DNA of 64,000 nt from Rhizobium brockwellii. GTDB lineage: Bacteria > Pseudomonadota > Alphaproteobacteria > Rhizobiales > Rhizobiaceae. A program made the position numbers and the translations under genes. Within the stretch, counting starts at the first letter, position 1; each line of letters begins with the position of its first letter. The notes beneath the pieces were generated by a model. The model saw only the letters and a program-made list of their open reading frames with translations, did no database searches and was not told the DNA's origin. This document shows positions 13,442 through 28,293 of this stretch, one piece after another. The DNA lies in contig NZ_CP053439.1 in the NCBI RefSeq assembly GCF_000769405.2, positions 1,240,001 to 1,304,000 of the forward strand, in the 5' to 3' direction.

Positions 13442-14311
13442 TCACCAATCCGGGGACAGCTTGGTCAGATACTGGCCGTAGGCACTCTTGCCGAGCTTCT
13501 CCGCGAGCTTGGCGAGGTCGTCCTGCGAGATGTAACCCATGCGCCAGGCGACTTCTTCGGGACAGGCGATCTTGAAGCCCTGGCGTTTCTCCAGCGTGCT
13601 GACGAAACCTGCGGCATCGAGCAGGCTGTCCGGCGTGCCGGTATCGAGCCAGGCATAGCCCCGGCCCATCAGCTCCACGAAAAGCTGGCCGCGCTCGAGA
13701 TAGGTGCGGTTGACGTCGGTGATTTCCAGTTCGCCGCGCGGTGATGGCTTCAGGTTGGCGGCGATATCGACCACCTGCTGATCGTAGAAATAGAGGCCGG
13801 TCACCGCCCAGTTCGATTTTGGCTTCTTCGGCTTCTCCTCGATCGATAGCGCATTCATCTTTTCGTCAAAGCCGACAACGCCATAGCGTTCAGGATCGGT
13901 GACGTGATATGCGAACACCGTCGCGCCTTCCCGCCGGCTCGTGCCGGATTTCATGATTTCCGGCAGTCCGTGCCCGTAGAAGATGTTGTCGCCGAGAACG
14001 AGTGCCGAGCTGTCGCCGTGCACGAAGTCGGCGCCGATGATGAAGGCCTGGGCGAGGCCGTCCGGGCTCGGCTGTACGGCATAAGTCAGCGAAATTCCCC
14101 ATTGCGAGCCGTCGCCGAGAAGGCGCTTGAAGGCTTCGACGTCGTGAGGCGTGGTGATGATCAGCAACTCCCTGATGCCCGCGAGCATGAGCGTCGTCAG
14201 CGGATAGTAGATCATCGGCTTGTCGTAGACCGGCATCAACTGTTTCGAGACGGCCTGCGTGATCGGATGCAGACGCGTGCCCGTGCCGCCGGCGAGAATT
14301 ATTCCCTTCAT
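13442..14311 (-). CDS. rmlA: Glucose-1-phosphate thymidylyltransferase
   Basis: RmlA makes dTDP-glucose from dTTP and glucose 1-phosphate, the first step to dTDP-rhamnose and to other 6-deoxy and amino sugars. The 289-residue protein has the nucleotidyltransferase signature [20 protein letters not shown], the [15 protein letters not shown] segment and [21 protein letters not shown]. It is the last gene of the minus-strand unit GT-rmlC-rmlB-rmlD-rmlA. Its 3' end lies 14 bp from the left island junction repeat. Confidence 0.96.
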
Positions 14312-14321
14312 GCCCTTCTCC

Positions 14322-15209
14322 CTAAAGACCCTTATTCAAAAGGTCTTGCATGACAATTTTCATGGACTGCTTCCACTCCGGAAGCCGGATTCCATATGTT
14401 CTGGCGAGCTTGTCACCGTTGAGACGTGATTTGGCAGGACGCGTCGCCGGTGTCGGATAGTCCGCCGTCGGGATGCGCTCGACGCCGACGTTTCTGCCGC
14501 CGGATTTAGAAAGCTCCGTGAATATCTCTTCAGCGAAGTCCGCCCAGCTTGCTTCGCCGCTGCCGGTCAGGTGGAAAGTGCCGCGCAGCGATGGCTCAGG
14601 GTCCGCTACGATACGGGATGCGATCGCAAGAATCGCGTCGGCGATGTCGAGCGCCGAGGTCGGGCATCCAGTCTGATCGGCGACAACGCGAAGATGATCG
14701 CGCGTCTCGGAAAGTCGGAGCATCGTTTTCAGGAAATTGGTGCCAAAGGGCGAATAGACCCAGGCGGTGCGCAAGATGACGTAGTTCGGGCTCGCCGCCG
14801 CGACGGCCTTCTCGCCCGCGAGCTTCGAGCGTCCGTAGACGGAGATCGGCGCCGTCGCATCCTCTTCGGAATAGGCGGAGGCCTTGTCGCCGCTGAAGAC
14901 GTAGTCGCTCGAAATGTGGATGACCGGGGCCCCTATTCGCGCGGCAGCCTCGGCGACCGCCCCGGCGCCTGCCGCGTTGACGGAAAAAGCAAGCTCGGCT
15001 TCGCTCTCGGCCTTGTCGACCGCCGTATAGGCAGCCGCCGAGACGATCACATCCGGGCGCAAAGCCGAGAAAGCGGCTGCGATGCTCGCAGGATCCGCAA
15101 GGTCCATTTCCGGGCGCCCGACCGCGTTGATTTCGACGCCCGTTTCGGCGCCGCGTCTGAGCAGCGACTGAACGACCTGGCCCTGTTTGCCGGTGACGGC
15201 TATGCGCAT
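14322..15209 (-). CDS. rmlD: dTDP-4-dehydrorhamnose reductase
   Basis: RmlD performs the final NAD(P)H reduction to dTDP-L-rhamnose. It is an extended SDR of 295 residues with the Rossmann start [17 protein letters not shown], the ISSDYVFSG segment, the [10 protein letters not shown] catalytic motif and [19 protein letters not shown]. The glycine loop reads GKQGQVV, as usual for RmlD. It lies 3 bp after rmlB and 10 bp before rmlA, so it is within one operon. Confidence 0.95.
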
Positions 15210-15212
15210 CGC

Positions 15213-16268
15213 TTATCGTCCCTTGAAAACGCCGAGGCGTTCGCCGGAGTAGACGTTTTCGCGCAGCGGCCTCCACCACCATGCGTTTTCCAAGTACCAG
15301 TGCACGGTCTTCTCTATGCCGGTTTCGAAGGTTTCTTGCGCCTTCCAGCCGAGTTCGCTTTCGAGTTTCGAGGCGTCGATCGCATAGCGTGCGTCGTGTC
15401 CGGGACGGTCCGTGACGTTGGCAATCAGACGCGCATGCGGTCCCTTTTCACTGTAGACGCCGTCGAGAATAGCGCAGATGCGATGAACGACATCGATGTT
15501 CCTGCGCTCATTGCGGCCGCCCACATTGTATTTTTCTCCGGGGCGCCCTCTGGATGCGATCGTGAAGAGCGCGCGGGCGTGGTCTTCGACATAGAGCCAG
15601 TCGCGCACATTCACGCCATTGCCGTAAACGGGAAGAGGCTTGCCCTCCAGTGCGTTCAGGATCATCAGCGGAATGAGCTTTTCCGGGAAATGGAACGGGC
15701 CGTAGTTGTTGGAGCAATTCGAGACGACGACGGGCATGCCGTAGGTTCGGTGCCAGGCGATCGCCAGATGGTCGCTCGCGGCCTTGGAGGCGGAATAGGG
15801 CGAGGAGGGATCGTAAGGCGTCGTTTCCTCGAAGAGGCCCTCGTCGCCGAGCGAGCCGTAGACCTCATCGGTCGAGACATGCAGAAAGCGGAAGGCACTC
15901 TTGCGGCGAGAGTCAAGCCCATCCCAATAGTGCCGTGCGGCATCCAGCAGACTAAACGTGCCGACGATGTTGGTCTGAATGAAATCGTCCGCGCCCGAGA
16001 TCGAGCGGTCGACATGGCTCTCTGCCGCGAGATGCATGACGATATCAGGGCGGAAGGACGCGAATGCTTCCTGCATCCTGGCGCGGTCGCAGATGTCGGC
16101 GTGCAGGAATTGATAGTTCGGCGCCGATTCGACGGATTTCAGCGATGCCAGATTGCCGGCATAGGTCAGCGCGTCGACATTCAGCACCTCGGCGCCGATC
16201 TCGCTGACGAGATGGCGCACCAATGCCGATCCGATGAAGCCCGCTCCGCCCGTGACCAGAATGCGCAT
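15213..16268 (-). CDS. rmlB: dTDP-glucose 4,6-dehydratase
   Basis: RmlB forms dTDP-4-keto-6-deoxyglucose, the branch point toward rhamnose or toward 3- and 4-amino-6-deoxysugars. The 351-residue extended SDR begins [19 protein letters not shown] and carries [12 protein letters not shown], the dehydratase signature STDEVYGSL, the [10 protein letters not shown] catalytic motif and [10 protein letters not shown]. Its product could also feed the VioA-like aminotransferase encoded at 19051-20160 in the same island. Confidence 0.96.
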
Positions 16269-16285
16269 GGTGAATCAATCCCTGG

Positions 16286-16852
16286 TTACTGTGCTGAATA
16301 GGAAAAATGGCTTGGCAGATCGGCGAGCCCCGGCAGCGTCTTGTCCTTGTCGGACAACACCATGTCTCTCTCATCGAAGGGCCAGCGGATGCCGATCGCC
16401 GGATCGTTCCACGCGATGCCCCGATCATGCTGCGGGCTGTAGGGCGCGGTTACCTTGTAGCTGATGACGCTGTTCGGCTCGATCGTTGCGAATCCGTGTG
16501 CGAAACCGGCCGGTACCCAGAGCTGCATGCCGTTTTCCGACGAGAGCTCCTGAGAGAGCCATTTGCCGAAGCTCGGCGATCCCTCGCGAATATCGACGAC
16601 GACATCCATGATCCGGCCGGCAAGGCAGCGCACCAGCTTGCCCTGTGCGAAGGGCGGTATCTGGAAATGCAGTCCCCTGATGGTGCCGGCCTGCGCCGAA
16701 AGCGATTCATTGTCTTGGATGAACGTGACGTCGGCCACATTTTCCCGGAACCAGGCACCCTTGAATACCTCGCAGAAGTAGCCGCGGTGATCGCCGAAGC
16801 GTGGCGGTGTGATCGCAACTATGCCCTCGATGGCCGTGGTCTCAATACGCAT
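16286..16852 (-). CDS. rmlC: dTDP-4-dehydrorhamnose 3,5-epimerase
   Basis: RmlC epimerises C3 and C5 of dTDP-4-keto-6-deoxyglucose. The 188-residue cupin-fold protein shows FGDHRGYFCEVF, the catalytic-histidine segment IRGLHFQIPPFAQGKLVRC, DVVVDIREGSPSFGKW and WVPAGFAHGFATIE. It is preceded by a glycosyltransferase gene ending 24 bp upstream and followed by rmlB 17 bp downstream, consistent with one transcript. Confidence 0.95.
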   Translation of the reverse strand: MRIETTAIEGIVAITPPRFGDHRGYFCEVFKGAWFRENVADVTFIQDNESLSAQAGTIRGLHFQIPPFAQGKLVRCLAGRIMDVVVDIREGSPSFGKWLSQELSSENGMQLWVPAGFAHGFATIEPNSVISYKVTAPYSPQHDRGIAWNDPAIGIRWPFDERDMVLSDKDKTLPGLADLPSHFSYSAQ

Positions 16853-16876
16853 GACTTACCTTTTCTGCAGCCTTCA

Positions 16877-18904
16877 TCAAACGCCCGACCTCATGACGCT
16901 CATCAGCATGTCCGCCTGCGACCGGCTCTGCATAGCCGCAAGGCCCTGCGCGGCAATGGCATCGCGCTCGTCGGCATCTGCGATCAGCTTGTAGCAGCGC
17001 TCGATCATGTCGTCATAGGGCTCAATTGCCAAGCCGCCGATGAAGGGCTGAAGGTCCGCATCGCGGATGTCGCCTTCCGTCAGCACGCAAACGCGATTGG
17101 CAAGCAGATAGGAAATGCGGACGATCTCGAAGACGCCGCTCGCATAATGATGGATGTTTATGACGATCTTGGCGCGGGCAATCGCTGCGTCGCGTTCCGC
17201 ACCATAGATGTTGAAGAGGTGCGCGACCTTGAGCCCGCCGTCCTTCAGCGTCTTCAGGATATGGTGGCGGCGTTCGTTCATCGAGCCGTAGAAGAGCACG
17301 TCGATATCTTTGACGGCGGCGTGCTGTATCTGGCTGAGGCAGCGGCTATAGCCGATTTCGAGCACGCCGGCGTGATCAATGCCCTTGGCGGCGAGATTCT
17401 CCCGGTTGCGCGGGCTGTAGTCGAGAACCGGAAGCGACTTCAGGATCGAGGTGTAGCGCGAATTGATCCAGATGCTTTCTTCGGACACCTGCTCGAGATT
17501 GATGACGACGCTGTCCTTCGGCAGATGGCCGACGATTTCGGCGGGGAGAAGATTGCCGCCATAGATGATCGGCGCACGGCCGGCGAATGCGTTCATGTCC
17601 CGGGTAATCGGTGCCGAGCCGCCGAGTTCCTCGAAGGCGCCCTGTAGGCCAAGCGCGACTTCGTCGAAGGCGTGGCTGTGATTGTAGTTGTCTGGCGTCA
17701 CGATCCAGATGCAATGACGGTCTCTGTGTGCCTGCCATCCGCCGGCAAAGGGCTGCAACAGGTTGCGGAGCGGCTGCTCGATCTTCGGCGCGGCTGATAT
17801 AGCGGGCCTTTCCGTCCGCACCGGCTGCTGCGGTACCGCGGAAGCGCCTGACGCCTGCTGAGCATAGGCGCGCATCAATTGGCGGCCGCCGATAAATTGG
17901 CCGCGCGGCATCCAGCCGGGCGGATCATCAGCCCCCCAGACCAGGTGCGGCTGCTTGATGAGCGGCTGGCGGCCTTGCTGCCACGAGGTCAGGACAGCCT
18001 CGTCACGGCTCCGCAGAAAGGCTTCCTTGGCGGCGAAGAGGCCATGCAGCATCCGGCCAAGGCGGACACCGAACTTCCATTCGAAATCGGCAACGGTCGG
18101 TACGAAGGCGGCGATCTTCAGTCCGGAGGCGATAGCCTGCTGCACATAAAGTCCGAGCAGACGCTCGATCACGAAGGGGCGCATCTTGGCGTTGGCATCG
18201 CGTGAATAGTGAGCCGAGCCGACATAGGCGGCGCCCGCCGCCGTGCCGGCGCGCGCTTGGTTTTCCAGCGATTCGAGAATGCGTTCGCAAAAGGCGAAAT
18301 ACCCGGACCAGAATTTCCGGTTGCCGCAGAAATAGTTGCAGAACATGAAGGCAGTCTTGTCCTGCGGCGGCGCGATCGGATAGCCCAACTCCTGGATATG
18401 CAGAAAGATCGGCTCCATGCCAGGGTGACCGCCAAGCAGCGAATGTTCCCAGACGTTGCTGTAGATCGCCGCGTGGCCGATCAGCGGATTGTAAAGATAG
18501 GCGTCCGCGCCTTCTGCCCTGGCCTTTTCCGCCTCCGTGACAAAGGACGGAAAGCTCGTCACCGACTTCATCTCGAATTTGCTGGAGAGCAGCCCCCAAA
18601 ACACGTCGTCACCGAGGCCGATCGCCTCGTGGTGCTGATGCAGGGTGAGGAAGAGTTCATATTCGCGGGTCGTAGCCTGCGTATTGAACGAGATGTCGAG
18701 CGGCATGGCAGCCGCATCGAGCTGGCTGCGCTGCGAAGGATCGAGATAAGGCTGATAGATAATGACGGATCCAGTGCCCGCAGCTTTCTCCGTGAGAAGC
18801 GCCAGATCAGGAAGACCGGCCGGCAGAGCGGAAATAGGCTGGTTGATCGTCAAGGCATCGTCCTTCGTGCATGATCGCCGTCTTCGTGATTCACAAAACG
18901 GCAT
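16877..18904 (-). CDS. Two-domain glycosyltransferase-like protein
   Basis: A cytoplasmic-looking protein of up to 675 residues. The C-terminal third (about 395-670) resembles GT-B glycosyltransferases that lack a long N-terminal lobe: VLEIGYSR, DIDVLFYGSMNERR, VAHLFNIYGAERDAAIARAKIVINIHHY and FEIVRISYLLANRVCVL. The N-terminal half (about 25-330) begins IIYQPYLDPSQRSQLDAAAMPLDISFN and contains HAAIYSNVWEHSLLGGHPGME; I do not recognise this domain, but it could be a second sugar-related module. A proline/alanine-rich linker joins them. ATG 18904 is far from a good ribosome-binding site; TTG 18853, preceded by GAAGGACG, is an attractive alternative. It leads the rml operon, suggesting it uses dTDP-rhamnose. 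Confidence 0.72.
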   Translation of the reverse strand: MPFCESRRRRSCTKDDALTINQPISALPAGLPDLALLTEKAAGTGSVIIYQPYLDPSQRSQLDAAAMPLDISFNTQATTREYELFLTLHQHHEAIGLGDDVFWGLLSSKFEMKSVTSFPSFVTEAEKARAEGADAYLYNPLIGHAAIYSNVWEHSLLGGHPGMEPIFLHIQELGYPIAPPQDKTAFMFCNYFCGNRKFWSGYFAFCERILESLENQARAGTAAGAAYVGSAHYSRDANAKMRPFVIERLLGLYVQQAIASGLKIAAFVPTVADFEWKFGVRLGRMLHGLFAAKEAFLRSRDEAVLTSWQQGRQPLIKQPHLVWGADDPPGWMPRGQFIGGRQLMRAYAQQASGASAVPQQPVRTERPAISAAPKIEQPLRNLLQPFAGGWQAHRDRHCIWIVTPDNYNHSHAFDEVALGLQGAFEELGGSAPITRDMNAFAGRAPIIYGGNLLPAEIVGHLPKDSVVINLEQVSEESIWINSRYTSILKSLPVLDYSPRNRENLAAKGIDHAGVLEIGYSRCLSQIQHAAVKDIDVLFYGSMNERRHHILKTLKDGGLKVAHLFNIYGAERDAAIARAKIVINIHHYASGVFEIVRISYLLANRVCVLTEGDIRDADLQPFIGGLAIEPYDDMIERCYKLIADADERDAIAAQGLAAMQSRSQADMLMSVMRSGV

Positions 18905-19050: not shown

Positions 19051-20160
19051 ATGAAAAACGAAAAGATCTATGTAACGAAGCCCAGCCTGCCGCCGCTCGA
19101 AGAATTCATTCCTTCGCTGGAAGCGATCTGGAACAACCGAATCCTGACCAATGGCGGGCCATTCCACCAGCAGCTGGAGCAGGAGCTCTGCGACCATCTC
19201 GGCGTGAAGCACATCAGCCTCTTTTCCAACGCTACCGTCGCGCTGCTGACGGCGCTTCAGGCGCTCCGCGTGACGGGCGAAGTCATTACTACGCCTTATT
19301 CCTTCGTGGCCACTTCGCATTCGCTTCTCTGGAACGGCTTGAAGCCCGTCTTCGTCGACGTCGACCCGGTGACGCTCAATCTCGATCCAGCGAAGATCGA
19401 GGCGGCGATCACGCAGCAGACGACGGCGATCATGCCGGTGCATTGCTACGGCCACCCTTGCGACGTCGATGCGATCCAGAAAATCGCCGACCTCTACAAT
19501 CTGAAGGTCATCTACGACGCCGCCCATGCCTTCGGCGTGGAAGACGAACGGGGAAGCGTTCTCAATCACGGCGACCTTTCCATCCTGAGCTTCCATGCGA
19601 CGAAGGTTTTCAACACATTCGAAGGCGGGGCCATCATCTGCCCGGACGCCAAGACGAAGACCCGCATCGATCAGCTGAAGAACTTCGGTTACGTCGACGA
19701 AGTGACTGTGGTGGCGCCAGGCACGAATGGAAAAATGAGCGAGTTCAACGCTGCGCTCGGCCTGTTGCAGCTGAAATACATCAAGCTCGCGCTCGAAAGA
19801 CGTGGGTTCATCGACGGTGCATACCGTGAGCGGCTCCGCGGGGTTTCGGGCATAGAATGCCTGGACCGTTCCGGTGAGACCGTCTCCAACTTCTCTTATT
19901 TCCCGATCCTTGTACGCCCTGACTATCCCATTTTACGCGATGAGCTCTATGAACGGCTGAAGGAAAACAACATTCATCCGCGCCGCTATTTCTATCCGTT
20001 GATTTCAACCTTCTCGATGTACCGCAGCCTGCCTTCCTCGCAGCCCTCGAATCTGCCGGTCGCAACCGAAGCCGCACAACAGGTGCTCTGCCTTCCGATC
20101 TATCCGGACATGGAGATGGACATCGTCGACAAGGTCTGCGCGCTGATCGAGTCGGCTTAA
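19051..20160 (+). CDS. DegT/DnrJ/EryC1/StrS sugar aminotransferase (VioA-like)
   Basis: A 369-residue PLP-dependent sugar-nucleotide aminotransferase. Fold-type I signs are LTNGGPFHQQLE, TTPYSFVATSHSLLWNG, VIYDAAHAFGV and SFHATKVFNTFEGGA, the last carrying the PLP lysine. The pattern most resembles enzymes that aminate dTDP-4-keto-6-deoxyglucose, such as VioA, which gives dTDP-4-amino-4,6-dideoxyglucose; the C3-specific FdtB/QdtB group is the alternative. RmlA and RmlB encoded nearby could supply the substrate. It is the only + strand gene of the island, divergent from the GT-rml operon, with GGACGG before ATG 19051. Confidence 0.82.
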   Translation: MKNEKIYVTKPSLPPLEEFIPSLEAIWNNRILTNGGPFHQQLEQELCDHLGVKHISLFSNATVALLTALQALRVTGEVITTPYSFVATSHSLLWNGLKPVFVDVDPVTLNLDPAKIEAAITQQTTAIMPVHCYGHPCDVDAIQKIADLYNLKVIYDAAHAFGVEDERGSVLNHGDLSILSFHATKVFNTFEGGAIICPDAKTKTRIDQLKNFGYVDEVTVVAPGTNGKMSEFNAALGLLQLKYIKLALERRGFIDGAYRERLRGVSGIECLDRSGETVSNFSYFPILVRPDYPILRDELYERLKENNIHPRRYFYPLISTFSMYRSLPSSQPSNLPVATEAAQQVLCLPIYPDMEMDIVDKVCALIESA

Positions 20161-20181
20161 AAACACGGTATTCCGACTGTC

Positions 20182-20220
20182 ATCTCGCACCGCAGATCGA
20201 AAGTATCTGCGGTGCGAGAT
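20182..20220 (+). terminator. Strong hairpin after the aminotransferase gene
   Basis: Perfect 16-bp stem ATCTCGCACCGCAGAT and its complement with loop CGAAAGT, 21 bp after the stop codon. No T tract follows, so it may act as an RNA 3' end or a bidirectional block. Confidence 0.6.
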
Positions 20221-20240
20221 CGTGCACCATTTGGTCGGCC

Positions 20241-20292
20241 AGAGCATGATGCCGAAAAGTGTAAGCGGTTTTCGGGCGACATCCTGTTCTAG
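20241..20292. repeat. RIME-like palindrome, module A
   Basis: AGAGCATGATGCCGAAAAGTG...GACATCCTGTTCT is the same element as 41206-41255, with a diverged right arm that resembles the end of module B (CCTGTTCTAG). It lies between convergent genes inside the island. Confidence 0.75.
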
Positions 20293-20383
20293 CCGCCTCA
20301 CTTGTCAGCAAAGACTTGAAGCGCGAGCTCTGCCTGCCAGATAATAGATCGCGAGTCGGCGCATTGCAGATGGCTGCTCATAC

Positions 20384-20416
20384 GAAAGCGGCGTGACCAT
20401 CGATCACGCCACTTTC
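20384..20416 (-). terminator. Hairpin after the Gfo/Idh/MocA gene
   Basis: Arms GAAAGCGGCGTGA and TCACGCCACTTTC pair at 12 of 13 positions with a 7-nt loop, 21 bp beyond the stop of the minus-strand operon. No T tract was seen. Confidence 0.45.
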
Positions 20417-20436
20417 CTCATCTCATAGACGCCAGA

Positions 20437-21651
20437 TTAAAGCGCCAGTTGCGGAGGTCGGATTTCGATCCGCTCCGTCACCGGGCGCCGTACGCCTTGC
20501 GGCTCGATCTCGACCCAGCGGTTTTCAAGCCGCGAGCATTCGATCGCTTCCAGCAGCCGTAGTCCTTCCTCCGCCTCCTCAAGCCCAAGCACGTAGGGAT
20601 GGGGCAGGCATGCGGTATTGGTCTTGTGTTGCAGCAGGGCGTCGGCAAGGTCGGCATAATAATTCGCGAAGGCTTCGATGAAGCCCGACGGATGGCCTGC
20701 CTTGAACCGCTCGTAGCGGGTATTGTTAGCGATCATGATATCCGGGCTGGCGCGATCGAGAATCTGCTTGCGGCCGTTGCAATCGTAGAAATAGGCAAGC
20801 TCGGGGGTTTCCTGAAGCCATTCGATCGATGCCTTGGAGCCATAGAGCCGCACACGCAGGCCGTTGCGTTGCCCGAGCGCGGTCTTGCCGTACCACATGC
20901 TGCAATGCAGGCCGCCGGCGCAGCGCACGAGCGCCTGCACATTGTCGAGCACCTGCGGAAAGTGACCGAAACTCTGGCTGGTTGCGCAGACTTCTTCCGG
21001 CTCCCGCTGAGTGAGGAAATGAAGCAGCGAGTGCACATGAACGCCGAGATCGAGCGAAACCGTCGGCACGGCGCCGTCGTGCAGGCGCCAATCCTGCGGC
21101 GTCATCGGCGTCCCGTCGCGGCGGAAACGGAGGAAGGTCTCCTGCGGCATCTCAATATGGATCTGCTGCAATTCGCCAAAAACACCATGCTTGACCATGC
21201 TGCGGATTTCGCGGAGCATGGGATATCCCGTGTAGTTGTAGGTTACGGCCAAAAAGGCCCCGTTACTGCGCGCATTGCCGATCATGCGCGTCTCGACGCT
21301 CGAACCGGCAAGGGCCTTTTCCGAGATCACCGAAACACCGGCCTCGAGTGCGGCGACAACCTGCTTCGTATGCTGCTGCGTCGGCGTCAGTACGACGAGA
21401 GCGTCGATGTTGCCGGCCTCTTTCGAGAGCAAGGTATCGAAGTCGGCGTGGCAGTGCTCCGGCAAAATGCGGTACTGCCCCGCCGTTTCGCGATTGATGT
21501 CGTCATGGCGGCTGAAGCAGCCGGCGACAAGATCGAATTTCTGATCAAGCTCGATTGCATCGCGATGAGCGCGACCCACAGCGGAATTGACGGCACCGCC
21601 TAGAAAGGCGAGGCGCAGCTTCTCCGGTACTCCCTGACTTGAGCGGATCAT
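20437..21651 (-). CDS. Gfo/Idh/MocA-family oxidoreductase
   Basis: A 404-residue NAD(P)-dependent sugar oxidoreductase. The Rossmann start reads LRLAFLGGAVNSAVGRAHRDA. The usual EKP catalytic motif appears as SEKALAG (EKA), and the C-terminal sheet domain includes DLGVHVHSLLHFL with the conserved Asp and His. Family members oxidise or reduce a sugar carbon, often a UDP- or dTDP-sugar or inositol; the substrate is not deducible. Its ATG overlaps the stop of the ATP-grasp gene by 4 bp (ATGA), so the two are translationally coupled. It is the last gene of a four-gene minus-strand operon. Confidence 0.83.
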   Translation of the reverse strand: MIRSSQGVPEKLRLAFLGGAVNSAVGRAHRDAIELDQKFDLVAGCFSRHDDINRETAGQYRILPEHCHADFDTLLSKEAGNIDALVVLTPTQQHTKQVVAALEAGVSVISEKALAGSSVETRMIGNARSNGAFLAVTYNYTGYPMLREIRSMVKHGVFGELQQIHIEMPQETFLRFRRDGTPMTPQDWRLHDGAVPTVSLDLGVHVHSLLHFLTQREPEEVCATSQSFGHFPQVLDNVQALVRCAGGLHCSMWYGKTALGQRNGLRVRLYGSKASIEWLQETPELAYFYDCNGRKQILDRASPDIMIANNTRYERFKAGHPSGFIEAFANYYADLADALLQHKTNTACLPHPYVLGLEEAEEGLRLLEAIECSRLENRWVEIEPQGVRRPVTERIEIRPPQLAL

Positions 21652-22841
21652 GCGAGATCTCCTTGCATCGTTTGGAGCGAAATGAACGTTTTGAAATCCG
21701 GCACCACCTTCAGCATTTCGTCTCGTGTCTCGAAGCGGGCGTAGAGGATGGCGAGCTTGTCGAGCGGTGCCGAATTCATCGGCTTGCCAGTGGTCTTGAG
21801 CTGCGTGATGCGAACATCGGATGATGGAATGGAGTGCGAGAAGGAAAACGGCGTCGAGGTCGTGTCGGAGGTGATGGTGTGGCGCCCGAAGAACAGCGGC
21901 GGATCGAAGCGCGGTTCGACAGAAAATTCCTCACCCAGCAGTAGCGTTATGACGAGGTCTGCGTAATCGATGCCGAGAGACTGATCGACAAGCGAGCCGT
22001 AAAGATCGCCCGGGCAGCGTCGCATGCATTCGACGATCCAGACATCGTCTCCATTCGACAGGAACTGCGTGTGAATGAGGCCGTCCTGCAGTCCGAGCAG
22101 CTTGACGACGCGTGCCATAATGGTCCGCGTCTTCGAGCGGACAGTTTCGGACAGGCGCGAGGGATGGTTCGATGAATCGACCTGGTATGGATAGACCGTG
22201 CAATATTCGTCGACAAAGACGTCGAAGACGACCTCCTGGTCCTTGATGAAGGCGGAATGGCTGTGCAGGCTGCCTTCGATGAATTCCTCGATAACGATCT
22301 CCGCCGCGCGCGAGTTTCCCCGGGCATCGGCGATGGCGTCGGCAAGTTCCGTCCGGTCGAAAACCTTCGTGACGCCACGGCCGCTGAAACTGTCGCTTGG
22401 CTTCACCAGCAACGGATAGCGTAGCGAGCCAGTCTCGACCGGCGAGTCGCCATGCAGGCGCACCGAACGCGGGGCGGGGATATCGTATTGCTCGGTAAAG
22501 CTGCGGAACGCTTGCTTCGTGTGAATGATGGTCGCGGTTTCCATCGAATCGAAGCGCGGAAATCCGAGTTTTTCGGCAACGAAGGTGCTCGACATATAGG
22601 CAACGTCATTGCCCGTCGGCACGATGAAATCGAAATCGCCGTTCTCGACGAGGGCGAGCAGCGTGTTCGGATCGCTGTAGTCGATGAAATGCGACTGGTC
22701 CGCATGCGCGTGGCAGGGTTCATCCGGCCGGTTTCCGCAAACGGAAATATGGAGGCCGCGCCTTTTCAAAGCGAATAGAAGGGGAACTGCGCTGAAGTTA
22801 CTGCCGACGAGCAATGCTCTCTTGGTCATTCTCAAATCCAT
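21648..22841 (-). CDS. ATP-grasp ligase-like protein
   Basis: A 397-residue protein with an N-terminal pre-ATP-grasp Rossmann part (ALLVGSNFSAVPLLFALKRRG, VPTGNDVAYMSS) and an ATP-grasp core: YPLLVKPSDSFSGRGVTKV forms the flexible lysine/glycine loop, EIVIEEFIEGSLHS the hinge strand, and DDVWIVECMRRCPGD the metal-binding end. These enzymes join a carboxylate to an amine, thiol or hydroxyl using ATP. Next to a sugar aminotransferase it may attach an amino acid or other acid to an amino sugar, but this is inference. Start ATG 22841 or 22829 (MTKRALLVG), both possible. Confidence 0.8.
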   Translation of the reverse strand: MDLRMTKRALLVGSNFSAVPLLFALKRRGLHISVCGNRPDEPCHAHADQSHFIDYSDPNTLLALVENGDFDFIVPTGNDVAYMSSTFVAEKLGFPRFDSMETATIIHTKQAFRSFTEQYDIPAPRSVRLHGDSPVETGSLRYPLLVKPSDSFSGRGVTKVFDRTELADAIADARGNSRAAEIVIEEFIEGSLHSHSAFIKDQEVVFDVFVDEYCTVYPYQVDSSNHPSRLSETVRSKTRTIMARVVKLLGLQDGLIHTQFLSNGDDVWIVECMRRCPGDLYGSLVDQSLGIDYADLVITLLLGEEFSVEPRFDPPLFFGRHTITSDTTSTPFSFSHSIPSSDVRITQLKTTGKPMNSAPLDKLAILYARFETRDEMLKVVPDFKTFISLQTMQGDLA

Positions 22842-23035
22842 TCCACGTGCCCTGAGCAGTCAGGGGCGTTGCGCATCAAACTGCTGGACCTCAGATTGGC
22901 AGCGCTCCCCGGTCCGTTTCCAATGTTCGAAAGACTCAAACGGATGCGGTAACCAAAGTCATAAGCCGCGGGCGTTTCCCCAGGCTTGCCGCTCGAGGCG
23001 GTGGACTTTGCCATCGCCTCGATTGGGCTTAAGCG

Positions 23036-25408
23036 CTACAGGATGACTTTCTGCAGAATCCGTTGGGGACTTATGCCCAGCGCCTCGATCTGATCGTAGA
23101 TTTCCGGCGCGCTTTGAACGGCGCCTATCATGATCGGCAGATCATCCGACAGGGCCGAATGAGGAGAGCGCACTTCAATGCCGCCGAGCCTCTGGCCGAT
23201 CATTTCAGGGCGTGGATCGACGAAATAAGCGATCTTGCTCGTTTTGAAGAACTGCGACTTGCGGCGAATAATCTGAGCCTGTCCGCCGATCCCCCAAACC
23301 ACAACTCCTTCGGAATGGACCGGCTCGAATGCCGTCTCCAGCACCAACGGTTCCAGCCTGGATTTCAGCAATGCCAGGGTTTCTGGCGTAACCGTCAAGA
23401 TCCGCTGCCAGACGAGATCGTCGAGGAAAATAAGGCGCGCGCCGCGAATTCTAAGCAGATGGTGAAGTTCGACGATGGACACCAATTGGTCATCCGTCAC
23501 GCGATCTGTTTTGAAATCGCAGCTGATTTGGAAGTTGCAATCGGTCAGGCCATTCTCGGCGATCAGGTCTGCATATTGCCGGAGCTCGTCGGAGGAGCTG
23601 TTTTCCGGCAAGAGAATATATTTGATGACGACGTTGCGTGAAGAGCAAGCAGCGTAGCGGCGGAGATTTTCGAATACCCGCTCGAAATGTTTGTACTTGC
23701 GGATTTCATTGAAATTCTTACTGTTTCCGGCGTCAATGCTGGTAACGATATGAGCTTGATCCTTCCTGAGAAGGTCTGCAAGGGTCTCCGAATACATCGT
23801 CGCGTTGGTGATGACGCGCTGCTTAACATTGGAAATGCCCTCAGCCAGCTTGCTGAGAAGATCGTTGAAGCGCGGCTCGACTGTCGGTTCGCCGCCGCCC
23901 CAGACGATATATTCCATGTTCTCGAGCGCCTTCGCATCCTTCAATGTATCGATAAATGCGCCGGTATCATAGGCGGGCTTCTTGCCGCCAAAATACGTCT
24001 CGCTGCAATAGGTGCAGCGCATATTGCAAAGCGAGTGATGCTCGAAGGAAAGATACTTTACGCCCTGATTGAGCGGCCGGCCCCAATCCTCGAATTTCAA
24101 GAAGGGACAGCCGCGGCATTCATCCGAGTTGTCGCGGTTGATCTCGAGGAATAGTGTATCCTTTGCCTGCTTGATATCGCTGTAGGTAAACTCGAAATCC
24201 TTGCCGTTACCGCCGAAAAGAACCACATCGCCTTTCAGCTCGCCTTCATAGGTGAAGCGCTTGCAGCAGGTGCGCACTTCGCCGGGTCCGAGCAGAATGG
24301 AATGATGAAGGTCGTAGCAGCTCCAGAGCTTCGGCGCGATCTCCGCGAAGACTTTCAGCATATCCTCCGTCGAATCGCCTTTTTCCATGCCGTTCATGAA
24401 GGCATCGAAGGTGATCCGGTATTTGGTGCGGAAGCCCGATGGCGGAACCGGCAGGGGATAGGCGATTGCAGCGAGCTCCATTGAGCGCACGACACGGCCG
24501 TAAAGCGTGGAGAGGATCTTGCCGGCATCCTCGAGCTTGACCACCTTGCCGGGCAGCAGCCTGAGCAGGCGGGACGCGGTCACGTTGATGATGCCTGTCA
24601 GGAATGGATCTTTCAGATCAGGCCACATTGGCGTGTCCGTCACGAGCGCATGCATGGCATCGAGCGCGTCGAAGAAGCCATCGACATGACGGGTGCTGAG
24701 CGAGTTGACGATTGAGCCCTGTGTATCGAGCTTGCGGTAGATCTGCCTGTCGAGACTCTTGACCGAACGCGCGCGCATCAGCGCGTGAAACATATAATCG
24801 ACGTCCTCGTGAAGGCCTCCGCGGAACATGATGTTGTTGTCGAGGAGAAAACGGCGGCGGAACAGATGGAAGATGACCGATCGATCGACGCGATCCCGGA
24901 GATAGTCCGCCAGCCTGTCGGCGCCCTCGACTCTGGTGAGATCCTCGCGGATGCGGGCCTTCAGGCTATTGCCGGTTTCTGCATCATAAAGGCTGGAGTT
25001 GAATGCGAGGATATCTGGGGAATCATCAAGGGATGCCTGAAGCGTCTCCAGAAAGTTGCTCTCGACGATGTCGTCGGCATCGACGAAGCAAATCCATTCG
25101 CCCTTTGCGTTGAGCACCCCTTCATTCCTGGCGATGCCGGGTCCGCCGTTGCTGTCGAGGCGCATAACAGTAACGTTATTGTGCCCATGAGCTATCTCTT
25201 CGGCCTTAGCGATCGTGTCGTCCGCCGAGCAATCGTCGACGACAATAATTTCAAATGGCGTCTGCCCCTGCTGATTTAGGAGGCTCTGCAGGCATCGCCC
25301 GATGACGTTTGATGCATTGTAGGCGGGGATGATGACGGAAAACGATGCCTGCACGATCTGCTCGCGTCCCCCCAGACCCGTCATTGGAGCATCCATCAAC
25401 TGCATCAT
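23036..25408 (-). CDS. GT2 glycosyltransferase / radical SAM / Rossmann fusion
   Basis: A 790-residue fusion. Residues about 20-330 are a GT-A family 2 glycosyltransferase (FSVIIPAYNASNVIGRCLQSLL, IIVVDDCSADDT, WICFVDADDI as DxD). Residues about 360-690 are a radical SAM enzyme: Cys461, Cys465 and Cys468 form CNMRCTYC, the CX3CX2C site for the SAM-binding 4Fe-4S cluster, followed by VWGGGEPT. Four further cysteines precede it (Cys381-Cys382 in RTCCKRF, Cys431 and Cys434 in CRGCPFL), as in twitch-type proteins with an auxiliary Fe-S site. The last ~88 residues form a Rossmann-like domain (VVWGIGGQAQIIRR ... VDPRPEMIG). The radical reaction is unknown; it may modify a sugar that the GT domain transfers. 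Start at ATG 25408 is uncertain; ATG 25405, 25396 and 25384 are also in frame. Confidence 0.85.
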   Translation of the reverse strand: MMQLMDAPMTGLGGREQIVQASFSVIIPAYNASNVIGRCLQSLLNQQGQTPFEIIVVDDCSADDTIAKAEEIAHGHNNVTVMRLDSNGGPGIARNEGVLNAKGEWICFVDADDIVESNFLETLQASLDDSPDILAFNSSLYDAETGNSLKARIREDLTRVEGADRLADYLRDRVDRSVIFHLFRRRFLLDNNIMFRGGLHEDVDYMFHALMRARSVKSLDRQIYRKLDTQGSIVNSLSTRHVDGFFDALDAMHALVTDTPMWPDLKDPFLTGIINVTASRLLRLLPGKVVKLEDAGKILSTLYGRVVRSMELAAIAYPLPVPPSGFRTKYRITFDAFMNGMEKGDSTEDMLKVFAEIAPKLWSCYDLHHSILLGPGEVRTCCKRFTYEGELKGDVVLFGGNGKDFEFTYSDIKQAKDTLFLEINRDNSDECRGCPFLKFEDWGRPLNQGVKYLSFEHHSLCNMRCTYCSETYFGGKKPAYDTGAFIDTLKDAKALENMEYIVWGGGEPTVEPRFNDLLSKLAEGISNVKQRVITNATMYSETLADLLRKDQAHIVTSIDAGNSKNFNEIRKYKHFERVFENLRRYAACSSRNVVIKYILLPENSSSDELRQYADLIAENGLTDCNFQISCDFKTDRVTDDQLVSIVELHHLLRIRGARLIFLDDLVWQRILTVTPETLALLKSRLEPLVLETAFEPVHSEGVVVWGIGGQAQIIRRKSQFFKTSKIAYFVDPRPEMIGQRLGGIEVRSPHSALSDDLPIMIGAVQSAPEIYDQIEALGISPQRILQKVIL

Positions 25409-25516
25409 TTGAAACCCTCTGTCTGCATGATCGCGCCATGTCGACCATCAATTAAATCGTGAAAATTGCGCGAAACGTGCGGATATCGTGAAGCTTTTAC
25501 CTGGATCGGCGGTCGG

Positions 25517-26509
25517 CTACGCGCTCCATCGCCCGGCATCATCAAGCAGCGCGCTCAGGCGTGCGATCCTCGCATCGAGTTCCGGAAAGGCAGCGCGCCA
25601 GTATTGGTAGACATTTATCAGATTGCGATAGGAGACCGGCAGATCCTGGGGGCTGAGGACGCCGTTGGCGCGCGCATAATTCAGAATGTCTTCGTGAAAG
25701 ACGATGGCGTAGATGAAAATCGGGTTGGTGGTGTGGTTTGATTTGGAATTGGAATGCTGCCGGAAATAGGAAAGCGGGTGAGGATGGGCGACGAAGGCGC
25801 CTTCCTTGGCAAGTTCTATCCAGCCTGAAAGATCGAGAAGGCCACGGAAGATACCGTTTTCGGGCCTGAAAAGGCGGAACTCGCCATTCCCGTCAAAGCA
25901 GTCCGCCTTACGCATCATCACGGTCGAATATTCGCCGATAAGGTTGAGATGATGCATCGCCGTCAGGCGGATGAAATCCCGCCCTTCGATGAGCTTTAAA
26001 CCTTGATCGACTTGGAAATAGTTGATCAGATTGAGGAAATTGTTCCTCTCGTCGATCACATGCCGCGGCGAAAAGGCAAGTTTTGTCCCTCTGTCGCGCG
26101 TTGCCTCCAGCGCTTCGAGAAGAAACTGTACGCAGAAAGGGTTAAGCACGTCGTCATCGAACAGATATTTGATGTATTCGCCCTGAGCGAGACCGGCGAG
26201 CCTCATGATGTTCGTGTATTCGCCCGGATGAGGATTGCGGCTATAGCTAATGAGGCTGGAATAGCGCGAACAGATTGCCTCGATGGCATCCGTCGGACAA
26301 TCGTCCGAGACGATGATCTCGGCATCCGTATAGCTTTGCGCGATTGCGCTCTTCAGGGCGAGTTCAAAAAAATCGGGCTTGTAGGCCGGTATACAGATCG
26401 ACACGCGCGGCAAGTGTTTCTCCCCTTGAGACGCCTCTCTCCAGCCTCCGCCGGCGAGAGCGGTGATCGGCTCTCCGAAGGACCGAAGCAGACCGCTTGC
26501 CATGACCAT
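25517..26509 (-). CDS. Family 2 glycosyltransferase
   Basis: A 330-residue GT-A glycosyltransferase without membrane segments, probably acting at the cytoplasmic face. Evidence is PRVSICIPAYKPDFFELALKS, EIIVSDDCPTD and YIKYLFDDDVLNPFCV, which gives the DxD metal site, and DLSGWIELAKEG in the acceptor half. The true start may lie nearer residue 30, since the first 30 residues precede the fold and ATG 26509 has no good ribosome-binding site. It is the first gene of the minus-strand operon with the radical SAM fusion, the ATP-grasp ligase and the oxidoreductase. It lies about 180 bp inside the right island junction. Confidence 0.82.
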   Translation of the reverse strand: MVMASGLLRSFGEPITALAGGGWREASQGEKHLPRVSICIPAYKPDFFELALKSAIAQSYTDAEIIVSDDCPTDAIEAICSRYSSLISYSRNPHPGEYTNIMRLAGLAQGEYIKYLFDDDVLNPFCVQFLLEALEATRDRGTKLAFSPRHVIDERNNFLNLINYFQVDQGLKLIEGRDFIRLTAMHHLNLIGEYSTVMMRKADCFDGNGEFRLFRPENGIFRGLLDLSGWIELAKEGAFVAHPHPLSYFRQHSNSKSNHTTNPIFIYAIVFHEDILNYARANGVLSPQDLPVSYRNLINVYQYWRAAFPELDARIARLSALLDDAGRWSA

Positions 26510-26669
26510 AGAACGCGGGCGTTACGCGAGGCTTGCGCAGAGGAAGAGGCACAAGTGGCAAAAAAGGCCCAGATCTCGTCCGATAAACAGATAATTCTGG
26601 GAGAAACGTGGCACGCACTCGGGCATTCGCAAGTGCGTTCCACGAGCATCGAGCCGGTGCGGTGGATTG

Positions 26670-26725
26670 CCCGGTTGGCGGAATTCCCTAACGAGAAAAC
26701 TGAATGATCTCGCCATTATACTGCG
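26670..26725 (+). repeat. Right island junction: ribE-tail copy joined to acetyltransferase tail
   Basis: Bases 26670-26689 copy the end of ribE (18 of 20 identical; read as ARLAEFP) although no riboflavin synthase gene precedes them. They run straight into the genuine acetyltransferase 3' end (26688 onward). The matching left junction is at 13334-13428, where 37 extra bases separate the two halves. Confidence 0.75.
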
Positions 26726-27203
26726 TGCGCGCCGTCTCGCGGAAACCGAGCTTGGCTGCGACCCGCAACGAGGCCTGGTTCTCCGGGCTGATGATGCAGC
26801 TCATCGGCTTTCCCGGAAAATGCGCCTCCGCCCAGCCGATCAGGACGGTCAGCGCCTCCGTTGCATAACCGCGGCCGTGCGCCGAAGGCATCAGCGCCCA
26901 GCCGACCTCCATCGTTCCCTCGATCGAGGGGTCCATCTCGCGCCGGGCTTCCAGGAAGCCCGCTTCGCCTATGAACCGGCCGCTCTCCTTTTCCATGATC
27001 GCCAGAAAGCCGAAGCCCATATGGTGCCACATGCCGGCAACGCGCAGCATGCGGCTCCAGCTCTGCTCGCGCGTCGATGGCGCGCCGGTGATGAAGCGCA
27101 CGACATCCTCGTCCGCCCACAGCGCCGCATGCGCGTCGAAATCGTCGAGGCGGTGAGGGCGAAGCGTCAGCCGCGCCGTTTCGAGAGTCGGAATGTCGGT
27201 CAC
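26688..27203 (-). CDS. GNAT-family N-acetyltransferase (RimJ/RimL-like)
   Basis: A 171-residue acetyl-CoA-dependent acyltransferase. It opens with the RimJ/RimL-type pattern LETARLTLRPHRLDDFDAHA, includes WALMPSAHGRGYATEAL, the acetyl-CoA pyrophosphate-binding loop of motif A, and ENQASLRVAAKLGFRET as motif B. The substrate is unknown. The start is taken as GTG 27203 (VTDIPTLETARL), preceded by AAGGATCC; the long upstream open frame lies antisense to the cupin gene. The cupin stop is 10 bp upstream. Its 3' end is duplicated at the left border of the polysaccharide island. Confidence 0.82.
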   Translation of the reverse strand: MTDIPTLETARLTLRPHRLDDFDAHAALWADEDVVRFITGAPSTREQSWSRMLRVAGMWHHMGFGFLAIMEKESGRFIGEAGFLEARREMDPSIEGTMEVGWALMPSAHGRGYATEALTVLIGWAEAHFPGKPMSCIISPENQASLRVAAKLGFRETARTQYNGEIIQFSR

Positions 27204-27213
27204 ATCGGATCCT

Positions 27214-27717
27214 TCAGGCGCCGGGCTCGCCGTCCCAATAGTCGAGATCGCCTTCCGGCCGTCCGATATGACGGAAGCGCTTGTTTTCTGCACCGTCCCT
27301 ATTGGTCTTGGCAAGGAACTTTCCGGAATCGGGATATTCGACGATCTCGGTCTTCGCCATCGTCGAGATACCGAGATAGACGAGTGTGGCCGTGCCGGTG
27401 TTGATGATCTGATGCGCCGTTTCCGGTCCGCCCGCCGGCGCGCCGAGCACATCGCCGGCCTTGATCGCATGGCGCGCATCACCGAACCGGTATTCGCCGG
27501 CACCCGAGATCACATAAAAGAGCTCGTCTTCGACATGGTGGTTGTGGAAGGGGCAGCCCGATTTGCCGGGCGGTACCTCGTTGTAGCTGACGCCGAGGCC
27601 GGTCAGGCCAAGTAGCGCGCCGAAAGAGGTGTCGGTGCTTTCATAGAGCTCGCCCTGTTTCCAGTGCTCGAGCTTGAGATCGGCGGTGTTGATCACCGCC
27701 TTCTGTTCGGTTGCCAT
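27214..27717 (-). CDS. Cupin-domain protein
   Basis: A 167-residue single-domain cupin. The two cupin motifs are visible: G(X)5HXH-like PFHNHHVEDELFYVISGAGEYRFG and GDVLGAPAGGPETAHQIINTG, with His and Glu residues suited to binding a metal ion. No substrate can be named. Start ATG 27717 (MATEQKAVI) follows a perfect GGAGGA; a further in-frame ATG at 27735 lies upstream of that site and is rejected. It probably shares a transcript with the acetyltransferase gene 10 bp downstream. Confidence 0.85.
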   Translation of the reverse strand: MATEQKAVINTADLKLEHWKQGELYESTDTSFGALLGLTGLGVSYNEVPPGKSGCPFHNHHVEDELFYVISGAGEYRFGDARHAIKAGDVLGAPAGGPETAHQIINTGTATLVYLGISTMAKTEIVEYPDSGKFLAKTNRDGAENKRFRHIGRPEGDLDYWDGEPGA

Positions 27718-27796
27718 GACGTCCTCCTGTTTCAAGAAGAGAAGCCGTCATCCAGGGAAAATTCAACGATTATCTGGGCCTATCTCTGATATCCCC

Positions 27797-27829
27797 AGCA
27801 TGGGCGGAGAGGAGACCGCCGCCCATGCT
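27797..27829. other. Hairpin in the cupin upstream region
   Basis: Perfect 11-bp arms AGCATGGGCGG and CCGCCCATGCT with an 11-nt loop, between the cupin gene and the small periplasmic gene. It could end the transcript of the latter. Confidence 0.45.
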
Positions 27830-27831
27830 TT

Positions 27832-27930
27832 GAGCGCCGCGCGTCGAATAGCACGCGATAAGGACGCTCGATCACTTCAACCCACGCATACCCCCGAAGA
27901 TCGTTCCGATTTTCGGGGGTATGCGCTGGA
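27832..27930. repeat. RIME-like composite, family C2' + D (reverse orientation)
   Basis: GAGCGCCGCGCGTCG...GGACGCTC (27832-27869) is followed by a palindrome with perfect 13-bp arms GCATACCCCCGAA (27886-27898) and its complement (27912-27924). This is the reverse-complement layout of 6561-6658. It ends 4 bp before the stop codon of the small periplasmic gene. Confidence 0.75.
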
Positions 27931-27933
27931 GCG

Positions 27934-28293
27934 TCAGCGGACGTAGAAGGTCAAGCTTCCGTCTGCTGCCTGCTCGGCGTTGACGATGTTGCGGACGTCG
28001 ACGCCCTCATTGTTGAGCCGGTGGGCAAGCGATCTGTTGGCGTCGATCGAGGCCTGGATGCCGTGAACGGCCTGACCGGAACGTTCTGGCGCCGAGCGCG
28101 GACCGGTCGTCTCGTCGTCGAGATTGCGCCAGTTGTGGACCTGCTCGACATTGAAATCATTGCCGTGGAAGGTCCTGAGTGTCTGCTCGATGCCCTGGGC
28201 ACTGTTCATCCCAAGGCTTTCGGCCCGGCTGACGCCGGCAAAGGCGAGGGAGGAGAGGGCTGCAGCGATAGTGATGGTGACAACGCGGTTCAT
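27934..28293 (-). CDS. Small secreted protein of unknown function
   Basis: A 119-residue protein with a clear Sec signal peptide (MNRVVTITIAAALSSLAFAGVSRA, cleavage near residue 24-25). The mature part is hydrophilic, without cysteines, and includes FNVEQVHNWRNLDDE, ASIDANRSLAHRLNNEGVDVRNIVNAEQ and a terminal LTFYVR, probably a short strand-rich periplasmic domain. I do not recognise a family. ATG 28293 follows AAAGGATACAATC. It is a stand-alone gene divergent from ribH. Confidence 0.75.
   Translation of the reverse strand: MNRVVTITIAAALSSLAFAGVSRAESLGMNSAQGIEQTLRTFHGNDFNVEQVHNWRNLDDETTGPRSAPERSGQAVHGIQASIDANRSLAHRLNNEGVDVRNIVNAEQAADGSLTFYVR

What the first reader, a model, noticed from the sequence alone, without database searches (positions are those of the whole stretch)
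23036..25408. Glycosyltransferase, radical SAM and Rossmann domains fused in one 790-residue protein
The sequence shows a full GT2 domain with a DxD site, a CX3CX2C radical SAM core (Cys461/465/468) preceded by four cysteines that could hold an auxiliary cluster, and a Rossmann-like end. I know of no characterised enzyme with this order. A sugar-modifying radical reaction (epimerisation, deoxygenation, C-C bond formation) coupled to transfer is possible. This is the best candidate for an undescribed system in the window.
Basis: partly seen in the sequence, partly recalled or inferred. Interest (0 to 1): 0.82.

Follow-up and report, generated by a model that had tools for sequence, protein, structure and literature searches.

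The report
Sugar transferase fused to radical enzyme
A soil bacterium carries a single protein that joins a sugar-attaching enzyme to a radical-chemistry enzyme; it belongs to a widespread but uncharacterised family that sits in gene clusters for unusual surface or flagellar sugars, so a radical step may be built directly into glycan assembly.

Summary
The protein lies on the minus strand: GT2 domain (about 20-345), a five-cysteine domain with twitch-like order placed before the barrel (361-441), a radical SAM barrel (452-690) and a small Rossmann-like end (698-790). It is no assembly artefact: a full-length relative (94% identity) lies in another Rhizobium genome, and 112 of 120 listed homologues carry both Pfam domains. 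In five loci GT2 and radical SAM are adjacent separate genes; trees put the fused forms in one clade with one later split.

Within about 10 kb the family co-occurs with a Gfo/Idh oxidoreductase (22 of 31 loci; 0 of 49 unmatched controls) and a carboxylate activator, ATP-grasp or AMP-ligase (27 of 31). C4 aminotransferases, mostly DesI-like, are frequent. The window also has rmlABCD. This resembles the Pseudomonas modified-viosamine island.

My reading: GT2 transfers an N-acylated 4-amino-4,6-dideoxyhexose and the radical part tailors that unit. The pathway is fairly well supported; the radical reaction is unknown (weak favourite: BtrN-like oxidation paired with Gfo/Idh). Nothing was shown biochemically.

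The parts
23036..25408 (-). GT2 - twitch-like - radical SAM - Rossmann fusion protein, 790 aa (P0001)
24374..25408 (-). GT2 part, residues 1-345 (GT-A fold, DxDD 110-113, HEDVD 200-204)
24086..24328 (-). Twitch-like five-cysteine domain, residues about 361-441 (C364, C381, C382, C431, C434), before the barrel
   Evidence: cysteines invariant 95 of 95 and 15 of 15; Cys / beta hairpin / Cys / helix / CX2C order in the model
23339..24055 (-). Radical SAM barrel, residues about 452-690 (C461, C465, C468; GGGEP 504-508)
   Evidence: PF04055; Foldseek to SkfB 1.5e-7, BlsE 5.4e-7, DesII 8.6e-7
23039..23317 (-). C-terminal small Rossmann-like domain, residues about 698-790
   Evidence: alternating strands and helices in the model; 3nkl UDP-D-quinovosamine 4-dehydrogenase 4e-4 by profile
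21648..22841 (-). ATP-grasp carboxylate ligase type protein, 397 aa
   Evidence: PF13535 1e-10; cluster found in 14 of 31 family loci, 0 of 49 controls
20437..21651 (-). Gfo/Idh/MocA oxidoreductase, 404 aa, overlapping the ATP-grasp gene by 4 bases
   Evidence: PF22725/PF01408; cluster in 22 of 31 loci, 0 of 49 controls
19051..20160 (+). DegT aminotransferase, DesI-like (dTDP-4-keto-6-deoxyglucose 4-aminotransferase type)
   Evidence: TIGR04427 301 bits, below its cut-off of 650; PDB 2po3 4e-65
13442..16852 (-). rmlA, rmlD, rmlB, rmlC: dTDP-glucose to dTDP-4-keto-6-deoxyglucose and dTDP-rhamnose
   Evidence: TIGR01207, TIGR01214, TIGR01181, TIGR01221 all above cut-off
25517..26509 (-). Second GT2 glycosyltransferase, 330 aa, upstream on the same strand
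   Evidence: PF00535 1.3e-14
16877..18904 (-). 675-aa protein with a weak Glyco_trans_1_2 match
   Evidence: PF13524 8.4e-5, 23 bits, below its cut-off of 25

Best explanation
A bifunctional glycan-assembly enzyme. Its GT-A (GT2) half transfers an activated sugar onto a surface or flagellar glycan. In the window the likely donor is a dTDP-4-amino-4,6-dideoxyhexose made by RmlA, RmlB and the DesI-like aminotransferase and N-acylated by the ATP-grasp protein. Its radical SAM half, with a twitch-like auxiliary-cluster domain placed before the barrel, carries out a radical tailoring step on that same glycosyl unit. Shown by sequence and models: domain architecture, clustering of the fused forms on the tree, recurrent cassette, two largely alternative carboxylate activators. 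Inferred: cluster binding, substrate, order of steps. My weak favourite for the chemistry (about 0.2) is a BtrN-type hydrogen abstraction with electron loss through the auxiliary cluster, giving a keto or inverted position that the partner Gfo/Idh enzyme reduces.
For: Both active-site signatures are conserved across the family. GT2 and radical SAM are adjacent separate genes in L023, L029, L032, L037 and L039. Trees give one fused clade with one later split, L023 (support 95/89 with 30 of 31 loci; 94/91 with 31 of 31). Within about 10 kb: Gfo/Idh 22 of 31 family loci vs 0 of 49 controls, AMP-ligase 16 vs 0, ATP-grasp 14 vs 0, DegT 20 vs 3; 27 of 31 have at least one activator. ATP-grasp only in 11, AMP-ligase only in 13, both in 3, neither in 4 (one-sided Fisher p 0.003); carrier protein in 11 of 16 AMP-ligase loci and 0 of 15 others. 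DesI is the best model for the aminotransferase in 11 of 19 scanned loci and for the window's own. The gene set resembles the modified-viosamine island (PMC3927599, passages). Foldseek's second and third different enzymes for the radical part are BlsE, a cytosylglucuronate decarboxylase, and DesII, which acts on a sugar nucleotide (the latter recalled).
Against: No substrate or product is known. The top Foldseek match to the radical part is the peptide-modifying SkfB, and VIA ranks PFL-AE and SuiB highest, so sugar chemistry is not singled out. 9 of 31 loci have no Gfo/Idh hit and 4 have neither activator (L023, L029, L030, L037); some loci are truncated. The DesI matches are all below the model's cut-off (at best 529 of 650). 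Five of 19 aminotransferases fit PseC best and 9 of 31 loci carry PseI, so the donor is not the same everywhere. In the annotated stretch of the window I found no NeuD/VioB-type acyltransferase (there is a GNAT acetyltransferase at 26688-27503) and no flagellin. Controls were not matched loci, and the HMMs were built from the family loci.
Confidence: 0.45

Rival explanations
1. The radical SAM half acts on the acyl (carboxylic or amino acid derived) group rather than on the sugar ring, for example forming a ring or C-C bond in an unusual N-acyl substituent; Gfo/Idh and the activator prepare that acyl group.
For: The most consistent partners are carboxylate activators (27 of 31 loci). In L015, L017, L018 and L019 the order AMP-ligase, Gfo/Idh, carrier protein, GT2-radical SAM places Gfo/Idh between ligase and carrier. 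B12-type radical SAM genes occur in 3 of 31 loci, though also in 3 of 49 controls.
Against: Fusion to a glycosyltransferase, not to the ligase or carrier protein. 15 of 31 loci have no AMP-ligase hit and none of these 15 a detected carrier protein.
Confidence: 0.25
2. The radical SAM half modifies the protein acceptor (for example flagellin) or makes a carbon-linked glycan, like peptide-maturing SPASM/twitch enzymes, with the GT2 half glycosylating the same protein.
For: 7 of 31 loci carry flagellin, FliD, FlaG, Maf or FleQ genes (types by Pfam). Closest sequence and fold matches include SkfB, SuiB and anSME.
Against: 24 of 31 loci have no such marker. The family is in Prochlorococcus and Pelagibacteraceae, which are non-flagellated (recalled). 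The sugar-biosynthesis neighbours are unexplained by a protein-only role.
Confidence: 0.12
3. A DesII-like radical elimination of the 4-amino group of the dTDP-4-amino-4,6-dideoxyhexose, giving a dideoxy sugar that is then transferred.
For: DesI-like aminotransferase beside it (relatives); DesII among the top Foldseek hits, 22% identity.
Against: A possible N-acylating enzyme in 27 of 31 loci points to the amine being kept (inference). The conserved five-cysteine domain has no evident role in a redox-neutral elimination, and DesII lacks one (recalled).
Confidence: 0.08
4. The fusion is an assembly artefact or a decayed gene.
For: None found. Some relatives keep the parts as two genes.
Against: Full-length relatives in other genomes, dN/dS 0.12, invariant active-site residues, one confident chain model.
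Confidence: 0.01

Closest known systems
Modified-viosamine (vio) island of Pseudomonas syringae pv. tabaci flagellin (PMC3927599; passages seen)
   Same: C4 aminotransferase on a dTDP-6-deoxyhexose, N-acylation, carrier protein and methyltransferase in some loci, a dedicated transferase, dTDP-rhamnose context; several family loci carry flagellin genes.
   Different: No radical SAM enzyme is among the seven ORFs named in the passages; here the acyl group would be activated by ATP-grasp or AMP-ligase instead of VioS/VioR, and a Gfo/Idh enzyme is frequent.
TarS, TarP and RmlT GT2 transferases (PDB 5tze, 6h4m, 8bz6)
   Different: No radical SAM domain (from the entries' descriptions and recall); low identity (17-23% in these rows); the acceptor cannot be inferred.
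SPASM/twitch radical SAM enzymes (SkfB, BtrN, MoaA, anSME; PMC6231123 passages)
   Same: CX3CX2C barrel; cysteines in the order Cys, beta hairpin, Cys, helix, cysteine pair.
   Different: The auxiliary-type domain comes before the barrel, not after it; five cysteines; only part of the seven-cysteine SPASM motif.
NCBIfam NF033640, N_Twi_rSAM (twitch domain-containing radical SAM protein)
   Same: A named model that, by its name, has an N-terminal twitch; 50.8 bits for the whole protein, 53.1 for the radical part.
   Different: Cut-off is 170 bits; the match starts at profile position 109 in both calls, so the presumed twitch part is not aligned. TIGR04317 scores higher (60 and 61.9 bits, cut-off 380).
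DesI/DesII (dTDP-4-amino-4,6-dideoxyglucose deamination)
   Same: DesI-like aminotransferase neighbour; DesII among best Foldseek matches.
   Different: A carboxylate activator as neighbour and a five-cysteine domain; no GT2 fusion in DesII (recalled).

Membership tests
Glycosyltransferase family 2 (GT-A) | GT2 profile match above the curated cut-off | tested here: met
   PF00535 120.7 bits against 23.3
Glycosyltransferase family 2 (GT-A) | DxD metal site and downstream acidic catalytic motif conserved | tested here: met
   D110, D112, D113 and H200, E201, D202 invariant in 24 of 24; which acidic residue would be the base is not settled
Glycosyltransferase family 2 (GT-A) | Transfer activity | not testable with these tools
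   No biochemistry
Radical SAM superfamily | CX3CX2C motif in a radical SAM profile match | tested here: met
   C461, C465, C468 invariant in 95 of 95; PF04055 67.9 bits against 29.5
Radical SAM superfamily | Partial TIM-barrel fold | tested here: met
Radical SAM superfamily | [4Fe-4S] cluster and SAM cleavage | not testable with these tools
   Needs anaerobic reconstitution
SPASM domain | Seven-cysteine motif CX9-15GX4C-gap-CX2CX5CX3C-gap-C (as given in PMC6231123) | tested here: not met
   C364-X11-G376-X4-C381 and C431-X2-C434 are present, the remaining cysteines of the motif are not; G376 is not conserved
Twitch domain | Cys before a beta hairpin, Cys after it, helix, then a cysteine pair | tested here: met
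   C364; strands 370-373 and 377-380; C381/C382; helix 409-424; C431 and C434
Twitch domain | Location C-terminal to the radical SAM barrel, as in SkfB | tested here: not met
   The cysteines precede the barrel in P0001 and the 14 other rows of A3
Twitch domain | Structural superposition on known twitch domains and cluster binding | tested here: inconclusive
NF033640 N_Twi_rSAM | Score above the curated cut-off of 170 bits | tested here: not met
   50.8 bits and 53.1 bits
Modified-viosamine island | dTDP-4-keto-6-deoxyglucose supply and a C4 aminotransferase | tested here: met
   rmlA and rmlB above cut-off; DesI-like DegT 301 bits, below its own cut-off
Modified-viosamine island | VioB-type acyltransferase, VioS, VioR and carrier protein | tested here: inconclusive
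   None among the genes scanned at 13.4-26.5 kb of the window, but no dedicated search of the window was run. NeuD-like and carrier-protein genes occur in 6 and 11 of 31 related loci

The most novel reading that the evidence does not exclude
A new class of glycan-editing enzyme: one chain that both attaches a sugar and, with an auxiliary Fe-S domain permuted to the front of the barrel, remodels the attached unit (ring or N-acyl group) by radical chemistry, so that surface and flagellar glycans of unrelated phyla carry a residue not yet described.
Probability: 0.25. Interest if true: 0.85.

Novelty: new variant of a known kind. Interest (0 to 1): 0.62.

Why it matters
I know of no characterised enzyme (recall) in which a glycosyltransferase and a radical SAM enzyme are one chain, and the listings of ten searches of the held open-access papers showed none. 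The fusion, the adjacent unfused forms and the recurrent cassette make a testable case: radical chemistry as a step of glycan assembly, possibly on the same unit that is transferred. The stand-alone forms (about 440 aa) and the Rhizobium gene give two routes to biochemistry, and a single gene deletion with glycan analysis would show whether a new sugar or acyl modification exists.

Tried and rejected
Assembly artefact: rejected by full-length relatives in other genomes. Phage or plasmid carriage: tblastn gave 44 phage records, none covering 80% of the query; the 20 shown match only the GT2 part, up to residue 337 (24 not shown); no plasmid match at 1e-20. N_Twi_rSAM membership: score far below cut-off. 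Searching the whole model against PDB told only about the GT part, so the radical part was folded and searched alone. A broad phylum sample gave only 2 of 398 genomes, own included, adding one locus (L090) that I did not analyse. DesII-like deamination was considered and set low. A shared docking role of the C-terminal Rossmann domain: its profile gave only weak hits in other proteins of these loci (best E 2e-4); left open. A PHROGs scan of the radical part found six families, radical SAM or unnamed, none telling. Cluster geometry in the models could not be measured because coordinates are not in the Python box. Paper library: nothing on the fusion in the listings; most subscription journals are not held. 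PMC2147049 (passages) and PMC3765264 (passages; Shewanella sfm operon with NeuB, TPP enzyme, reductase, methyltransferase and ATP-grasp, no radical SAM in the passages seen) gave context only.

Several are close kin (L017/L019, L035/L036/L038) or truncated. The 49 controls are the remaining loci L040-L088, among them the distant kin L040-L046; they are shorter on average (15.5 vs 18.4 kb), not matched for gene content, and the HMMs came from the family loci themselves, so the Fisher values overstate independence. ORFs came from a simple greedy caller. The first tree had 37 rows: 30 of 31 family loci, the window, L040-L044 and L046. My script had dropped L024 and L045 because it took the wrong profile segment and then failed them on length. 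I repeated it with both (39 rows): same grouping, support of the fused group 94/91 instead of 95/89, long branch for L045; the L024 slice there also held part of its GT2 domain, in columns mostly trimmed.

Full report

THE CYSTEINES. C461, C465 and C468 form CX3CX2C. Before the barrel come C364, C381, C382, C431 and C434; all eight are invariant in 95 of 95 and in 15 of 15 rows of the radical part, distant stand-alone proteins included. The order in the model is Cys, beta hairpin 370-380, Cys, helix 409-424, CX2C. That is the order described for twitch domains in the SkfB paper (PMC6231123, passages), but there the domain follows the barrel. So it is twitch-like and permuted. That it binds a cluster is inference. 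The NCBIfam model N_Twi_rSAM is matched at 50.8-53.1 bits against a cut-off of 170, from profile position 109 on, so membership is not met.

A REAL AND WIDESPREAD FAMILY. A search of 5.8 billion proteins gave 351 hits; of the 120 listed, 112 have both PF00535 and PF04055 and 8 lack PF00535 (only proteins of 0.55-1.75 times the query length are candidates, and only the 7992 best candidates were scored). A second search with a stand-alone radical SAM protein gave 181 hits, many of 430-442 aa. A genome scan gave what I count as 31 family loci (L009-L039) from Rhizobium, Methylophaga, Helicobacter, Colwellia, Pseudoalteromonas, Verrucomicrobiota, Planctomycetes, Prochlorococcus, Pelagibacteraceae and others. 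It is patchy: 2 of 37 same-genus genomes including the own one, 2 of 398 in a phylum sample including the own one.

FUSED AND SPLIT. In L023, L029, L032, L037 and L039 the GT2 gene ends within about 10 bases of the radical SAM gene's start. The GT2 profile of the fused family ranks the unfused GT2s of L031, L039, L023, L037 and L034 highest among unfused GT2 ORFs of the 80 loci; those of L029, L036, L032, L035 and L038 overlap in score with other GT2s. In trees of the radical part the fused rows form one group with one split row, L023, inside it: support 95/89 with 30 of 31 family loci and 94/91 with all 31. Roots are midpoint roots. Host taxonomy is scrambled (the Rhizobium rows sit beside Methylophaga, Sulfurimonas and Prochlorococcus), which suggests transfer between lineages (inference). 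The gene is under purifying selection against L009 (dN/dS 0.12; GT 0.20, twitch plus radical part 0.09, C-terminal end 0.03 on two changes).

THE CASSETTE. Profiles of neighbour clusters, E <= 1e-10 (carrier protein 1e-3), within the fetched flanks: Gfo/Idh 22 of 31 family vs 0 of 49 control loci; AMP-ligase 16 vs 0; ATP-grasp 14 vs 0; carrier protein 11 vs 0; DegT 20 vs 3; PseI 9 vs 1; PseG 8 vs 1; NeuD 6 vs 1; methyltransferase 5 vs 0; B12-type radical SAM 3 vs 3. ATP-grasp alone 11, AMP-ligase alone 13, both 3, neither 4; carrier protein in 11 of 16 AMP-ligase loci and 0 of 15 others; Gfo/Idh in 11 of 11 ATP-grasp-only loci (one a fragment, L020). Gfo/Idh is within 3 kb of the radical gene in 21 of 22 loci, ATP-grasp in 14 of 14, AMP-ligase in 12 of 16. 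I read this as two largely alternative ways to activate a carboxylate, most simply for N-acylating an amino sugar; NeuD-type acyltransferases go with AMP-ligase in 5 of 6 loci (not significant, p 0.17).

THE SUGAR. The window has rmlA, rmlB, rmlC and rmlD above cut-off and a DesI-like aminotransferase (301 bits, cut-off 650). Of the 20 loci with DegT I scanned 19 (all but L009): DesI was the best model in 11 (none above cut-off), PseC in 5 (three above cut-off), a dTDP-4-amino-4,6-dideoxygalactose transaminase (WecE type) in 1 (above cut-off), RfbH in 1 and LegC in 1 (both below). So amination at C4 of a 6-deoxyhexose is the common theme, with more than one nucleotide sugar. Seven of 31 loci carry flagellin, FliD, FlaG, Maf or FleQ genes (FleQ-type hits also occur in 3 of 49 controls, flagellin, FliD, FlaG and Maf in none), so part of the family probably serves flagellin glycosylation. 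The nearest described system is the modified-viosamine island of Pseudomonas syringae (PMC3927599, passages).

MECHANISM. I favour: C4 amine made, N-acylated, unit transferred by the GT2 half and tailored by the radical half, before or after transfer. What the radical step is cannot be read from these data. A BtrN-like oxidation with Gfo/Idh as the reducing partner would explain the two frequent redox enzymes and the auxiliary-type domain, but the fold ranks put peptide or protein modifying enzymes first, and an action on the acyl group is nearly as likely.

SURROUNDINGS. The island lies between ribE (12748-13362) and ribH (28640-29095). In same-genus genomes with both genes on one contig (21 of 23, own included) the gap is 1.3-2.2 kb in 15, 8.7-8.9 kb in 3 and 15.2-15.5 kb in 3; the fusion is in two of the last three (distances worked out by hand from the listed positions). 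GC falls to 0.54-0.57 at 23-26 kb against 0.60-0.66 at 10-18 kb; 0.58 also occurs at 9 and 28 kb.

Noticed in passing
window 13362-28640: The ribE-ribH interval is a variable island site in this genus: about 1.3-2.2 kb in 15 of 21 measurable genomes, 8.7-8.9 kb in 3, 15.2-15.5 kb in 3 (one of these, G017, without the fusion gene).
   Followed up: partly
L034:10079-11377: The Roseibium radical SAM frame is interrupted by an in-frame stop in the fetched record; it may be a pseudogene or a sequence error. A GT2 relative lies about 4 kb away, at 5008-5787.
   Followed up: no
L015:13549-15795, L021:15495-17342: B12-type radical SAM neighbours end in a stretch weakly similar to the C-terminal Rossmann-like domain of the fusion (E 4e-3 and 2e-4).
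   Followed up: partly
L045:3660-4928: A distant radical SAM relative appears by eye to carry a Rossmann-like stretch at its N-terminus instead of its C-terminus.
   Followed up: no
P0057, P0116, P0117 and others: The precomputed Pfam table lists PF22674 for many relatives, but our scan of three of these proteins at E up to 1 shows no such hit; not explained.
   Followed up: no
window 16877-18904: A 675-aa protein with no NCBIfam match and only a sub-threshold Glyco_trans_1_2 match at its end; relatives in L009 and, partly, L017 and L026.
   Followed up: no
L011:16524-20645, L017:15272-19360, L019:13297-17199: Very large ORFs (1300-1373 aa) matching the GT2 profile lie 1-4 kb downstream of the fusion gene in three loci.
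   Followed up: no
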